Source: Clostridiaceae bacterium (lineage in GTDB: Bacteria > Bacillota > Clostridia > CAYPLH01 > DUMO01). Taken from it: 32,400 nt of DNA. Position numbers and translations under genes: made by a program. The stretch's first letter is position 1. The number at the start of each line of letters is the position of its first letter. Positions 5,702 through 9,832 of the stretch are shown here, one piece after another. The notes under the pieces were generated by a model that searched no databases, was not told the DNA's origin, and saw only the letters and a list, made by a program, of their open reading frames with translations. The stretch is from contig DUMO01000001.1 of assembly GCA_012839865.1 (NCBI GenBank), forward strand, positions 1-32,400. Reading direction: 5' to 3'.

Positions 5702-6208
5702 ATGGATGCAAAATATTTTGCTGAATTGGCTGTAAAATTGGGTGCCGATCATGCGGTGCCATTCAAAATCGAAGACATAACTTTTGACGACAGGACAATT
5801 TTAAAATGCATGTTTGGCTGTGGTGACTGGGGAAAAGGGCATACCTGCCCTTCAAGGCCAAATTCGCTGAAACCGTGGGAATACAGGAAAGTATTTGAGC
5901 GATACTCATGGGGAATTATAATACATTCCACAGATAAGAAAATATCCCAGGATGTATCTTTTGAAATAGAGCGGGAGGCATTTCTGAAAGGATATTACTT
6001 TGCCTTTTCATTAAGTGATTGCGCCGTATGCAACAAATGCGCCGGGTTTGAGAATCTGGAATGCCGCAATAAAAGAAAAGCAAGACCTGCATTCCACAGC
6101 GTAGGGATTGATGTATTCAAAACCGTTAGAAAATTCAACCTGCCCATCGACACCCTAAAGTGCCCGGAAGACACCCAAAATTGGTATTCGGCAGTATTTA
6201 TTGAATGA
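5702..6208 (+). CDS. DUF2284 cysteine-rich metal-binding protein
   Basis: Matches the pattern of the DUF2284 family (predicted metal-binding, function unknown), 168 residues, soluble. Two Cys clusters are visible: Cys36 and Cys40 followed by GDWGKGHTCPSRP with Cys49, and Cys107-x2-Cys110-x2-Cys113 followed by Cys121, with a last Cys154. The second cluster resembles an iron-sulfur or zinc ligand set. The ATG at 5702 is preceded by AAGGGGG with seven bases of spacing. It lies 112 bases after the ATP-grasp-like gene on the same strand, without a visible terminator between them, so co-transcription is possible. In other anaerobes such genes sit near corrinoid or redox genes; cobO is only 3 kb away on the other strand, but no link can be shown. 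Confidence 0.82.
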   Translation: MDAKYFAELAVKLGADHAVPFKIEDITFDDRTILKCMFGCGDWGKGHTCPSRPNSLKPWEYRKVFERYSWGIIIHSTDKKISQDVSFEIEREAFLKGYYFAFSLSDCAVCNKCAGFENLECRNKRKARPAFHSVGIDVFKTVRKFNLPIDTLKCPEDTQNWYSAVFIE

Positions 6209-6280
6209 GGTGCGGCAATAAAAAATTGCATTTTACTTAAACACAGCAATGGCATAATACACCTGAAAATAAAATTTATT

Positions 6281-6546
6281 TAACAGTCTGTTTAAAATTT
6301 CATTTAAACATCGCAGTCAGTTTAAAAAGGGCAACAGCTCTATTGCAGCTTTTGCAGCGAGGCTTAGGAAAACACAGTTTAAAATGCCTTGGAGCCTTAG
6401 TAATGTCCGCGTGTTTGAGCAGAGCGAGTTCGCGGAATTACTTAGGTGACAAGGCATTTTAAACTGGCTGTTTTCCTTGCCGATGCTGTACTGCTGCAAT
6501 AGAGCTGTTGTCCTTTTTTAGAGTTGAAATTTAAAACAGTCTGTTA
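6281..6546. repeat. Long palindromic element, copy 1, with outer 22-bp arms
   Basis: The core (6324-6519, about 196 bases) is an imperfect palindrome. Its ends are AAAAAGGGCAACAGCTC and the reverse complement GAGCTGTTGTCCTTTTT, and its inner arms CAGTTTAAAATGCCTTG pair with CAAGGCATTTTAAACTG. The centre contains GCGAGTTCGCGG. Outside the core a second inverted pair, 6281-6302 and 6525-6546, matches at 20 of 22 positions by eye; the right arm includes the stop codon of the GH18 gene. The core is the reverse complement of the copy at 9037-9229, at roughly 90% identity by eye. No protein is encoded. It is consistent with a MITE-type non-autonomous element that also acts as a transcription terminator. 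Confidence 0.8.
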
Positions 6547-8307
6547 ATTATTTTGTGTGTCGCTGTTTGCCACGACCCATTCCTGATAGTTCTCATGCAA
6601 TTTAAGATTCCTGTACAACACATTCCAAACTTCTGCGGTCTCAAAGGTCTTGCTCCAGCTTGCTGTCCCGGCGAGTTTATATTTATGGACAAGAGACGAT
6701 TTCAAGTTGATTGAAGTTTCATCCTCCAGCCAGATTTTATAAACCGCTTCGTCTTTTTTATATTGTGCATAGTATTGACCGCTTACACTGTCCCACTCAA
6801 TCTGAGCATCATTTTCCTGAATGAGTTCATAGGCCCGCTGCATGGCTACAACACCCGGACTTGTAACCCTGAAAATTCCGTTTTCGTCGATTCCTTCCTT
6901 CCAGACCCTTACATAAAAAGGCAAACCCAGAAGCAGTTTTTCCCTTGGCACAAGATCAAGCATTCTTTTAATATTTTTTTCCACCCATGTCAATTGAGCC
7001 ACCGAACCTGCTACAGGAGAAGTCGCCCAGTGCTGGTCATATGTCATGACCATTATGTAATCCACCACTTCTGCAAAAGCCTCCCTGTCATAGCAAAGGG
7101 AGTAGTTTTCGCTTCCGTCGGGAACTCCCACGTCAATGGATACCACAAGGCCCTGCTCCTTGAATAAGGGAGTTGCTTCCCTGACGAACTGTGTCAAAGC
7201 ATCTTTGTTTCGCATGTAAACATTCTCAAAATCAATGTTAATGCCGTCAAGCTCATATAAAGCTGCATAAGCCAAAAGCTGCTTTATCAGATTATCCCTT
7301 GCCTCGGTGCTGTTTAGAAGTTTTTCGGTATTATCCGGATTTTTAAATTCATTTTGCAAAAGAGCCCATACCTGATAACCAAGCGCATGGGCCCTGTCGA
7401 TATATACCTTGTCACAACGGTTTAAAACATCGCCATTTTCGTTTATTACTTCAAAAAATGTAGGTGAGAGTACATCAAGGCCTTCTATTTTTGTCACTTC
7501 AGGCCTCTTTCCATAAGTCATTTCCCAGACCAGATTCAGTTTGCCCTTTTCAGGCTTCCATTCAGGTTCATATGATTTTCTCACGGGTAACTCGTTAACC
7601 AGGAGTTTTTTTATAACAACATGCTTGCTTTCAATGTAACCGATTATGCCATCCGACGTTCTTACCTTGTACCAGCCATCATATGTTTCAAAAACCCTCA
7701 AAAGATTGTCTTCCTGTTTTTCGGTATTGAGGTTGAACTTCTTAAGTACCGGGTACCTGATGGACTTTCCTTTCCTGACACATGCCTCGGAGCTTATGGG
7801 CTCCGCAATTTCCCTTATGCTGTTTCTATAGTCGATAATAATGACATTATTGCTTTTGACGCGATTTATCTCGATATTGTAATATTCACTCAAAAAATCA
7901 ATCGGTATATATACAACACCGTTATCTATTTGAGCCGGTATGTTTAGCTTTATGGGCTCATTGTTAACCAGGGCGTCAAGGTTGTCCGTTCTCATTCTGA
8001 TTACCCTGTTGCCGGTTGTGATTGTAACAACCTTAAGCTCTTCATCCCACCAAATATACGGGTCAAAATACTTTCTTACTGTCTCGATAGGCAAAAGTAT
8101 TTCCTCGTCAATAATTTTAGGAGGTGATGCCATAGTGACATGCTCCCCCTCCACTACGAGGTTAAGGGTTCCTTCTGCAAAAGCTGGAACTACACTGCTG
8201 TTTGGCACAAAATAGTAACGGTACAGCGCTGCCGTTGGAATTGCCATACCTGCTATTGCCGCCAGTATAAGTATAATTGCAAATAATGTTATCAGAAAAC
8301 TTCTCAA
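6544..8307 (-). CDS. Membrane-anchored stalk/SH3/GH18 glycosidase-like protein
   Basis: Probable cell-wall or spore-cortex glycoside hydrolase (family 18, YaaH/SleL type), anchored by an N-terminal membrane helix. With the TTG start at 8307 the layout is: membrane helix ~2-28; a copper-amine-oxidase-N-type stalk domain with two repeats ~45-160; a bacterial SH3 domain ~172-235 (YDGWYKVRTSDGIIGYIES); GH18 domain ~255-570. The catalytic motif is DGINIDFE (354-361), with Asp359 and the acid/base Glu361 kept and Asn in place of the middle Asp, which is usual in the YaaH-like group. MVMTYDQHW (419-427) is the second GH18 strand motif. A GGGGG sequence nine bases before TTG 8307 supports this start; the frame extends to a TTG at 8337 without a ribosome binding site. 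It lies 60 bases downstream of the DUF6106-like gene, and both are bracketed by the palindromic elements. Confidence 0.85.
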   Translation of the reverse strand: MRSFLITLFAIILILAAIAGMAIPTAALYRYYFVPNSSVVPAFAEGTLNLVVEGEHVTMASPPKIIDEEILLPIETVRKYFDPYIWWDEELKVVTITTGNRVIRMRTDNLDALVNNEPIKLNIPAQIDNGVVYIPIDFLSEYYNIEINRVKSNNVIIIDYRNSIREIAEPISSEACVRKGKSIRYPVLKKFNLNTEKQEDNLLRVFETYDGWYKVRTSDGIIGYIESKHVVIKKLLVNELPVRKSYEPEWKPEKGKLNLVWEMTYGKRPEVTKIEGLDVLSPTFFEVINENGDVLNRCDKVYIDRAHALGYQVWALLQNEFKNPDNTEKLLNSTEARDNLIKQLLAYAALYELDGINIDFENVYMRNKDALTQFVREATPLFKEQGLVVSIDVGVPDGSENYSLCYDREAFAEVVDYIMVMTYDQHWATSPVAGSVAQLTWVEKNIKRMLDLVPREKLLLGLPFYVRVWKEGIDENGIFRVTSPGVVAMQRAYELIQENDAQIEWDSVSGQYYAQYKKDEAVYKIWLEDETSINLKSSLVHKYKLAGTASWSKTFETAEVWNVLYRNLKLHENYQEWVVANSDTQNN

Positions 8308-8367
8308 ATGATTAAACCCCCAGAAAATCCTCAACAAAATACAGGTAAGCTTTCAGGTTATTAAATT

Positions 8368-8871
8368 TTATTTGAATATCTTGCTTGGAATAAACAGTCT
8401 AAAAGCATTCAACATTTTCTCACTTGGTTCAAAATAAACAACGGTTCTCTCACCCTGAAAGTTTGTTACAAAGAAATAAACATCCTGAGATTCCATTGAT
8501 GAAACTGCTTCAATCCTTTTTGGAATATTCTGTATGCTCTGGGTATGCTGGCTGCTTTTCAGGGGTGCGAGAATTTCAAAATCCTTGCAGCTGCCGGAAA
8601 AAACCCTCTTTCTCCTGCTTCTTGCAATAATCTTGTCAATATCAATTTCACCATTGGTGACAGAATATTCAAACTCAATATTCCTGGATCTAATGAGAAG
8701 ATATGCTCCGTAAACCGCTCCTGCCATAAACACCAGCGGCATATAATTAATGTAAGGAATTGCCGGAATAATAAAAATCACAATAGCGCACAACAACACA
8801 ATTCCCACACTGAAAAGCAAATCCTTTGCCGTTTTTTTCCTCTCAACAATTTTTTCAATAAATGAATCCAT
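8368..8871 (-). CDS. DUF6106-like membrane protein, 167 aa
   Basis: Two adjacent membrane helices (residues about 20-38 and 43-60) follow a short charged N-terminus that begins MDSFIEKIVERKKT, and a soluble C-terminal domain of about 100 residues follows. This resembles the clostridial DUF6106 family, of unknown function; I assign it from memory of the pattern, with moderate certainty. The C-terminal part is likely cytoplasmic and mixed alpha/beta, with no catalytic motif that I can see. The ATG at 8871 has GGGAGG six bases upstream. It is the first gene of a two-gene unit with the GH18 protein and has its own sigma-A promoter at 8940-8968. Confidence 0.75.
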   Translation of the reverse strand: MDSFIEKIVERKKTAKDLLFSVGIVLLCAIVIFIIPAIPYINYMPLVFMAGAVYGAYLLIRSRNIEFEYSVTNGEIDIDKIIARSRRKRVFSGSCKDFEILAPLKSSQHTQSIQNIPKRIEAVSSMESQDVYFFVTNFQGERTVVYFEPSEKMLNAFRLFIPSKIFK

Positions 8872-8939
8872 TACCTGCCTCCCGAATCTGATTATGAAAA
8901 GTATCTTAACTGCTCTATTTATGAATACCTTTGTAAAGT

Positions 8940-8968
8940 ATTATAACATAATTATAAACACATATCAC
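8940..8968 (-). promoter_or_regulatory. Sigma-A promoter for the DUF6106-GH18 unit
   Basis: On the minus strand GTGATA (8963-8968) is separated by 17 bases from a perfect TATAAT (8940-8945), about 69 bases upstream of the ATG at 8871. Confidence 0.55.
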
Positions 8969-9036
8969 CATTAAAGAAAAAAATACATGAGAGATTTGAT
9001 TGATGCCGGATATCGCTCTGAAAAGCAACTGCAGCT

Positions 9037-9229
9037 AAAAAGGACAACAGCTCTATTACAGCAGTACAGCATCGGCAAGGGAAACAGCCAGTTTAAAATG
9101 CCTTGTCATCTAGTAATTCCGCGAACTCGCTTCGCTCGGGCACGCGGACATTACTAAGATTCCAAGGCATTTTAAACTGTGTTTTCCTAAGCCTCGTTGT
9201 AAAAGCTGTAATAGAGCTGTTGTCTTTTT
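9037..9229. repeat. Long palindromic element, copy 2 (inverted relative to copy 1)
   Basis: This 193-base imperfect palindrome has the same ends (AAAAAGGACAACAGCTC ... GAGCTGTTGTCTTTTT) and the same inner arms as copy 1, but lies in the opposite orientation. The centre reads GCGAACTCGCTTCGCTCGGG. The 7-mer CAACTGC occurs at 9026-9032 and again at 9230-9236, directly abutting the right end and four bases from the left end, which could be a target-site duplication. The outer 22-bp arms of copy 1 are absent here. Confidence 0.8.
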
Positions 9230-9382
9230 CAACTGCCTGCCACACCATTAATGAAATGTGTGTAGAGCAATAACAAATGGATTTATTTTGCTTCCAGCAC
9301 TTTCAACGTTGTCCTTTTAATTGTGAATAATTCAGGAAAAATATTGAAATAATAGTTACTGATACTTTAGGAGGTAAAAGAA

Positions 9383-9832
9383 TTGGCCGGAGGACGTACT
9401 TTGAAGGACAGCTCAACAGTTGCACAATTTTTAAAATATTCATTGGCGGGCGGAATTGCAACTTTAGTTGATTTTACTGTGTTTTCGTTGGCCGCAGGCG
9501 CACTTGGAGTAAACCACATTTTAGCAAATACACTCTCCTTCACTGCCGGTTTGGCTGTGAACTATTTATTAAGCGCAAGCTGGGTTTTCAGGACCGAAAC
9601 AAACAATAAGGCAAGGGATTTTGCAGTATTTTCAGTTATAGGAATTATCGGTCTTGGATTAACCAACCTTTTACTTTACCTGTTTATAGACCTGGGAATA
9701 ATGCTGCGGATTTTTTATTTTCTTCATGAAGACATGATACTTATGTTATCCAAAATGATAACTGTTGCAATAGTACTTGTTTGGAATTTTTCAGCCAGAA
9801 AAAAATTTCTCTTCAGGGCAAATGCCACATAG
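9383..9832 (+). CDS. GtrA-family membrane protein (copy 1)
   Basis: GtrA-like proteins are small four-helix membrane proteins that assist transfer of polyprenyl-phosphate-linked sugars across the membrane. This 149-residue protein has the usual opening, QFLKYSLAGGIATLVDFTVF, and ends with a WNFSARKKFLF motif at the last helix, as in the family. Four hydrophobic helices are visible, at about 17-40, 42-62, 76-97 and 115-138. The start is TTG at 9383, eight bases after AGGAGG. The flavoprotein gene begins 76 bases downstream on the same strand. A second GtrA is at 24047-24481 at the head of the glycosyltransferase cluster, so this pair looks like a satellite of that pathway. Confidence 0.9.
   Translation: MAGGRTLKDSSTVAQFLKYSLAGGIATLVDFTVFSLAAGALGVNHILANTLSFTAGLAVNYLLSASWVFRTETNNKARDFAVFSVIGIIGLGLTNLLLYLFIDLGIMLRIFYFLHEDMILMLSKMITVAIVLVWNFSARKKFLFRANAT

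What the first reader, a model, noticed from the sequence alone, without database searches (positions are those of the whole stretch)
6281..9236. Two long palindromes in opposite orientation bracket a two-gene unit
Seen: ~195-bp imperfect palindromes at 6324-6519 and 9037-9229, about 90% alike by eye when one is reversed, enclosing DUF6106 + GH18 genes. Copy 2 has a possible 7-bp CAACTGC duplication; copy 1 sits inside another 22-bp inverted pair touching the GH18 stop. This resembles a composite made of MITE-like elements, with the palindromes perhaps also serving as terminators, or an invertible segment.
Basis: partly seen in the sequence, partly recalled or inferred. Interest (0 to 1): 0.6.

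Follow-up and report, generated by a model that had tools for sequence, protein, structure and literature searches.

The report
Hairpin mobile-repeat copies around an operon
The two long palindromes are members of a family of small hairpin-forming, probably once-mobile DNA repeats scattered through the gaps between genes of this uncultured Clostridia-type genome; they flank an old, conserved gene pair by coincidence and do not form a mobile or switchable unit with it, but the way their arms stay matched makes them a useful natural record of how DNA palindromes repair themselves.

Summary
6324-6518 and 9037-9229 are near-complete palindromes (DNA-fold z -15.6 and -11.9), 92% alike once one is reversed, and copy 1 lies inside a further 26-bp inverted pair. 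They are not unique. The same genome holds 12 near-complete copies and about a dozen fragments, essentially all between genes. Better-preserved copies carry a 13-bp terminal repeat, GTTANTGTTCAGG, and an 8-bp target duplication (permutation p 0.001). This is a lineage-specific MITE-like family; copies 1 and 2 belong to its older, end-decayed group. The "composite" reading fails: DUF6106 and GH18 are neighbours in relatives lacking the palindromes, and two copies this close are not unlikely by chance (13-42%). Inversion cannot be tested, and would carry the operon's own upstream region along. No IS66, DDE_Tnp_1 or IS256 transposase is present. Arm substitutions are compensated far above shuffles (15 vs 5 pairs). 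A second, more abundant palindromic family shows this mainly in its outer 18 pairs, and its palindromes extend into locus-specific flanks. Replication template switching explains that best; selection and insertion into hairpins are not excluded.

The parts
6324..6518 (+). Palindrome copy 1 (family A, older group); hairpin core with loop around 6405-6436
9037..9229 (-). Palindrome copy 2 (family A, older group), opposite orientation, 92.4% identical core
6277..6302 (.). Left arm of an outer inverted pair enclosing copy 1
   Evidence: 23 of 26 paired with 6525-6550; score 18.5 vs maximum 10 for mismatched flank pairs
6525..6550 (.). Right arm of that outer pair; overlaps the GH18 stop codon
   Evidence: stop codon at 6544-6546
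9026..9032 (.). CAACTGC, left copy of a possible decayed target duplication of copy 2
   Evidence: read from sequence; ambiguous, also pairs with the right end
9230..9236 (.). CAACTGC, right copy
   Evidence: read from sequence
9250..9290 (-). Truncated end module of a second palindromic repeat family (family B) abutting copy 2; the same arrangement is next to the A copy on contig C60
6544..8337 (-). Cu_amine_oxidN1 - SH3 - GH18 protein, 597 aa
8368..8871 (-). DUF6106 protein, 167 aa; conserved neighbour of GH18 in relatives
5702..6208 (+). DUF2284 protein, convergent neighbour of GH18 across copy 1
9383..9832 (+). GtrA/DPMS transmembrane protein, divergent neighbour of DUF6106 across copy 2

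Best explanation
The two palindromes are two independent, old insertions of one lineage-specific, non-autonomous, hairpin-forming MITE-like family (family A: about 175-bp palindromic core, about 245-255 bp when complete, with a 13-bp terminal repeat GTTANTGTTCAGG and 8-bp target duplication). Shown: the multicopy dispersed family, terminal repeats and duplications in the younger copies, intergenic location, and an ancestral DUF6106-GH18 pair in relatives without palindromes. Inferred: a cut-and-paste (DDE) transposase, now absent or not recognised, moved the family. Copy 1 probably entered the loop of an existing hairpin next to the GH18 stop. Since insertion the long arms have been kept matched, most likely because a replicating strand folds back on the hairpin and copies the opposite arm outwards (quasipalindrome template switching), rather than by any role of the bracketed genes. 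Confidence 0.85 is for the repeat-family reading; the template-switch step alone is about 0.4.
For: Twelve near-complete copies and about a dozen partial ones in the same 2.74-Mb genome. 8-bp duplications at a fixed boundary: matches 5,4,7,8,7,2,7,0 of 8 in eight copies, sum 40 vs 21.5 expected, p 0.0012; of the widths and offsets tried, only this register and its equivalent (10 bp counted from one base further in, which contains the same 8 bases, p 0.0004) stand out clearly. TIR matches bracket no transposase gene. Copies are effectively intergenic. DUF6106 is adjacent to GH18 in L066, L067 and L068 and one gene away in L064, with no matching palindromes in those genomes and no sizeable inverted repeats around the pair in L066 and L068, only weak ones in L067 and L064. 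Two copies within 2.75 kb have a chance probability of 0.13-0.42. Pair maintenance: 98.0% of cells paired vs 94.5% in shuffles, 15 pairs changed on both sides vs 5.0, 0 of 500 shuffles. Within the window, pair 6345-6497 is G-C in copy 1 while its equivalent 9209-9058 is A-T in copy 2. Template-switch polarity: in family B both-side changes concentrate in the outer 18 pairs (19 compensated/9 not, vs 5/39 inside, p 1e-6) and palindromes run on into unique flanks (82 vs 52 expected, 0 of 1000 permutations). The mechanism is established elsewhere (PMC8794818, PMC3820800, PMC7202029).
Against: Copies 1 and 2 themselves lack the recognisable TIR and a clean target duplication; membership rests on core homology. 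No transposase with matching ends was found; IS66, DDE_Tnp_1 and IS256 are absent and other families were not tested. The outer-versus-inner contrast in family A itself is only marginal (p 0.05 by cells, 0.20 by distinct types). No empty-site allele in a close strain was available.
Confidence: 0.85

Rival explanations
1. Composite transposon: two MITE copies in opposite orientation jointly mobilise DUF6106 + GH18, as in TIME-COMPs.
For: Two inverted copies bracket exactly two genes; such MITE composites exist (PMC13367494).
Against: The gene pair is adjacent in palindrome-free relatives; outer 8-mers differ; chance proximity is not rare.
Confidence: 0.04
2. Invertible segment: homologous recombination between the 195-bp inverted copies flips 6520-9036.
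For: Inverted stretches of 121 nt (89%) and 76 nt (96%) 2.5 kb apart.
Against: No inverted allele seen; no site-specific recombinase among the ten proteins of the locus that were scanned. The DUF6106 upstream region (promoter-like site at 8968-8940) lies inside the segment, so inversion would not switch expression.
Confidence: 0.05
3. Functional bidirectional terminators or insulators kept by selection, which would also explain compensated pairs.
For: Very stable RNA-capable hairpins with T-runs on both strands in the two window copies (GTCCTTTTTT, GCCCTTTTT, read); copy 1 lies between convergent genes; strong covariation.
Against: Copy 2 lies in a divergent gap; the family is 9 tandem, 4 divergent, 3 convergent; the T-runs are absent from most other copies; in family B compensation is concentrated in the outermost pairs and extends into flanks, unlike selection on a whole stem. 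A simple terminator scan did not pick these sites, although its loop limit excludes such long hairpins.
Confidence: 0.25
4. REP/REPIN-type palindromes moved by a RAYT (Y1) transposase.
For: One Y1_Tnp protein in the genome; one A copy (C54) sits in the loop of a GGGGACGGTTCT hairpin of the kind found around that gene.
Against: Family A has 8-bp target duplications and 13-bp TIRs; the RAYT flanks hold short GGGACGGTTCT repeats, not A or B sequences.
Confidence: 0.05

Closest known systems
Bacterial MITEs (general class, 50-500 bp non-autonomous elements; definition as in PMC13367494)
   Same: Size, multicopy, non-coding, terminal inverted repeats and fixed-length target duplication in the better copies, intergenic
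   Different: No autonomous partner found; nearly the whole element is one long imperfect palindrome; the two window copies have lost recognisable ends
TIME-COMP / MITE composite structures (PMC13367494)
   Same: Two MITE-like copies in inverse orientation around genes
   Different: The gene pair is ancestral in place; no outer duplication; not on a mobile replicon as far as seen
REP / REPIN elements with RAYT (PMC3116915, PMC3733652, PMC2817692)
   Same: Palindromic, extragenic, many copies, hairpin-forming
   Different: Much longer, TIR plus 8-bp duplication, no RAYT link
Quasipalindrome template-switch mutation (PMC8794818, PMC3820800, PMC7202029)
   Same: Arms made perfectly complementary by copying one from the other; palindrome extended outwards
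   Different: Those are small natural or reporter palindromes or RNA genes; here many copies of one repeat in one genome would record the process

Membership tests
Bacterial MITE | Multiple dispersed copies of a short (50-500 bp) non-coding element | tested here: met
   12 near-complete plus about a dozen partial copies
Bacterial MITE | Terminal inverted repeats | tested here: met
   GTTANTGTTCAGG-type ends (up to 3 mismatches) at both ends of 7 copies; not recognisable in copies 1 and 2 of the window
Bacterial MITE | Target site duplication of fixed length | tested here: met
   8 bp, p 0.0012; inconclusive for window copy 2 and not seen for copy 1
Bacterial MITE | Autonomous element or transposase with matching ends | tested here: inconclusive
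   No transposase gene between TIR matches; IS66, DDE_Tnp_1, IS256 absent; other transposase families not tested; draft assembly
Bacterial MITE | Empty site in a close relative | not testable with these tools
   No close relative held; distant relatives have the gene pair without palindromes
MITE composite (TIME-COMP-like) | Cargo acquired or moved together with both copies | tested here: not met
   DUF6106-GH18 adjacency in palindrome-free relatives
MITE composite (TIME-COMP-like) | One target duplication outside both copies | tested here: not met
   GTCAGTTT vs CAACTGCC at the outer core ends (read)
Invertible segment | Both orientations present | not testable with these tools
   Single assembly, no reads
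Intrinsic terminator | Hairpin followed by T-run downstream of a gene end, transcripts ending there | tested here: inconclusive
   Hairpin and T-runs present; copy 2 is upstream of both neighbours; no RNA data
REP/RAYT | Linked RAYT flanked by the same palindromes | tested here: not met
   The single Y1_Tnp locus carries other repeats

The most novel reading that the evidence does not exclude
After insertion, copies of palindromic MITE-like repeats in this genome are repaired and lengthened outwards by replication template switching: the outer stem pairs of each copy change together, and the palindrome grows into locus-specific flanking DNA, so that a genome's own repeat family is a replicated natural experiment on quasipalindrome mutagenesis. 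An alternative, equally novel form is that these elements preferentially insert into the loops of existing hairpins, giving nested palindromes (copy 1 of the window, C54, several B-in-A cases).
Probability: 0.4. Interest if true: 0.6.

Novelty: new member of a known kind. Interest (0 to 1): 0.38.

Why it matters
For annotation, it removes a suspected mobile or switchable gene unit and replaces it with two repeat copies around an old operon. More generally, covarying stems are routinely read as proof of a selected RNA; these repeats show strong covariation in elements with no evident function, concentrated in family B at the outer ends and continuing into unique flanks. If template switching is the cause, covariation alone is weaker evidence for functional RNA than usually assumed, and this genome offers dozens of independent cases to test that.

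Tried and rejected
Rfam: no family matches. Plasmid, phage and IMG/VR searches for family A: nothing. Family A in 99 class relatives and in the 12 genomes with GH18 relatives: nothing. The order of this genome has no other member in the held set. A TIR pair 1.7 kb apart on C44 looked like an insertion sequence but encloses a LexA-like repressor gene and a GTP-cyclohydrolase-type gene (names by eye). General hairpin-loop targeting of family A: 1 of 8 reconstructed empty sites (C54) folds as a hairpin; over all 12 copies only copy 1 of the window and C54 stand out, so it is not a rule. Family B target duplication: no clear one found. Family B in 391 class genomes: only short weak matches, several of them to one 58-bp hairpin module.

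Full report
OBSERVATION. Inverted arms 6322-6442/9112-9232 (121 nt, 89%) and 6443-6518/9037-9112 (76 nt, 96%) relate the two copies. Each folds alone far better than shuffled DNA (z -15.6 and -11.9). Their cores are 92.4% identical in the same orientation. Copy 1 additionally lies within an inverted pair, 6277-6302/6525-6550 (23 of 26 paired), scoring 18.5 where mismatched flank pairs of the family reach at most 10.

A GENOME-WIDE FAMILY. A search of the genome containing the window found 12 near-complete copies (including the two) and about a dozen partial ones. Of 18 copies examined, 16 lie between called genes, and the two exceptions lie inside short spurious-looking frames: 9 tandem, 4 divergent, 3 convergent contexts (gene calls there are simple open frames). 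Copies fall into a younger group (seven copies, about 90-97% identical to one another) and an older one (the two window copies, C66, C60, C4; 84-90% to the rest, 92% between the window copies). The younger copies end in GTTANTGTTCAGG and are flanked by 8-bp duplications: 8/8, 7/8, 7/8 and 7/8 in four copies, weaker in the others, with a sum of 40 against 21.5 expected when flanks are permuted (p 0.0012). Only this register, and the 10-bp register that contains it (p 0.0004), stand out clearly among the widths and offsets tried. This is the signature of transposition by a DDE-type enzyme (general knowledge), so family A is a MITE-like family. The window copies belong to its older layer and have lost clean ends; copy 2 keeps a possible 7-of-8 duplication (CAACTGC) that can also be read as stem.

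NO PARTNER FOUND. TIR matches in the genome do not bracket any transposase gene. Profiles for IS66, DDE_Tnp_1 and IS256 find nothing in this genome while ringing in control genomes. A single Y1 transposase exists, but its flanks carry short GGGACGGTTCT repeats and not family A or B. Other transposase families were not tested, and the assembly is a draft of 89 contigs.

NOT A COMPOSITE. DUF6106 stands directly beside the GH18 gene in L066, L067 and L068 and one gene away in L064. Those genomes hold no match to the palindrome. No sizeable inverted repeats surround the pair in L066 and L068, and only weak ones occur in L067 (within the genes) and L064. The pair is therefore an old neighbourhood into whose borders the repeats came later. 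With 12-24 randomly placed copies the chance that some two lie within 2.75 kb is 0.13-0.42, so bracketing needs no special explanation, and opposite orientation has probability one half. The outer 8-mers do not match. Inversion between the copies is conceivable, but the segment would carry the DUF6106 upstream region along (promoter-like site 8968-8940), so no on-off switch is apparent; it cannot be tested with one assembly.

WHY THE ARMS STAY MATCHED. On the alignment of the 12 copies, 98.0% of pair cells are standard pairs against 94.5% in shuffles, and 15 pairs show changes on both sides against 5.0 (0 of 500 shuffles; relatedness among copies inflates such counts somewhat). In the window, pair 6345-6497 is G-C in copy 1 and its equivalent 9209-9058 is A-T in copy 2. 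A second palindromic family (B: 62-270 bp, ends ATGAAATGTATGCAGAAC, 34 distinct copies with both ends) shows the same more sharply. Both-side changes concentrate in the outer 18 pairs (19 compensated, 9 not) and are rare inside (5 against 39; Fisher p 1e-6; by distinct types 14/8 against 3/28, p 6e-5). In addition, the unique DNA outside the ends is complementary beyond expectation (82 vs 52, 0 of 1000 permutations), with loci such as L177, L198 and L154 continuing the palindrome for several to about ten bases. Fold-back copying of one arm onto the other during replication predicts this: correction tracts run outwards from wherever the nascent strand folds back, so outer pairs are rewritten most often and the palindrome can grow past the element (mechanism: PMC8794818, PMC3820800, PMC7202029; its application here is inference). 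Selection for an RNA hairpin would predict compensation along the whole stem and none in the flanks. Insertion into existing hairpins predicts a gap between flank stem and element; copy 1 of the window and C54 look like that, the family B cases do not. For family A alone the outer/inner contrast is marginal (p 0.05 by cells, 0.20 by distinct types).

TERMINATOR QUESTION. Both window copies have T-runs at the 3' foot of the hairpin on both strands, which most other copies lack. Copy 1 lies between convergent gene ends and could end both transcripts. Copy 2 lies between divergent gene starts, where a terminator would serve neither gene. A terminator role for copy 1 is possible but unproven.

VERDICT. 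Real repeats, MITE-like, ordinary as a kind, not tied to the two genes they bracket. The interesting residue is the pattern of arm correction and palindrome growth, visible mainly in the companion family B.

Noticed in passing
L143-L172, L173-L202 (e.g. L154:1335-1540, L163:1335-1540, L177, L198); window fragment 9250-9290: A second, more abundant palindromic repeat family (B, 34 distinct copies with both ends; 62, 123, 205 and 270 bp forms) whose outer 18 pairs covary copy by copy while inner pairs decay mostly uncompensated, and whose palindromes extend into unique flanks.
   Followed up: partly
G000 C41:231155-231429, C26:23502-23785, C41:239479-239765 (L083-L085): Three family A copies carry the same roughly 60-bp piece of family B inside one arm, and several B copies lie inside what look like A remnants (L161, L166, L169): modules are exchanged or nested between the two families.
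   Followed up: partly
L080 (C54:27687-27906): One A copy sits exactly in the loop of a long-stemmed GGGGACCATGGGGACGGTTCT hairpin; similar GGGACGGTTCT repeats surround the genome's only Y1 (RAYT-type) transposase gene at L213.
   Followed up: partly
G000 (whole genome): No IS66, DDE_Tnp_1 or IS256 transposase in a 2.74-Mb genome that carries dozens of MITE-like repeats, suggesting that the source transposons were lost.
   Followed up: partly
L086 (C41:212383-212511), L142 (C61:33606-33719): Two A copies have lost the hairpin centre, apparently between CAAGGCAT direct repeats, as expected of deletion by slippage across the hairpin.
   Followed up: no
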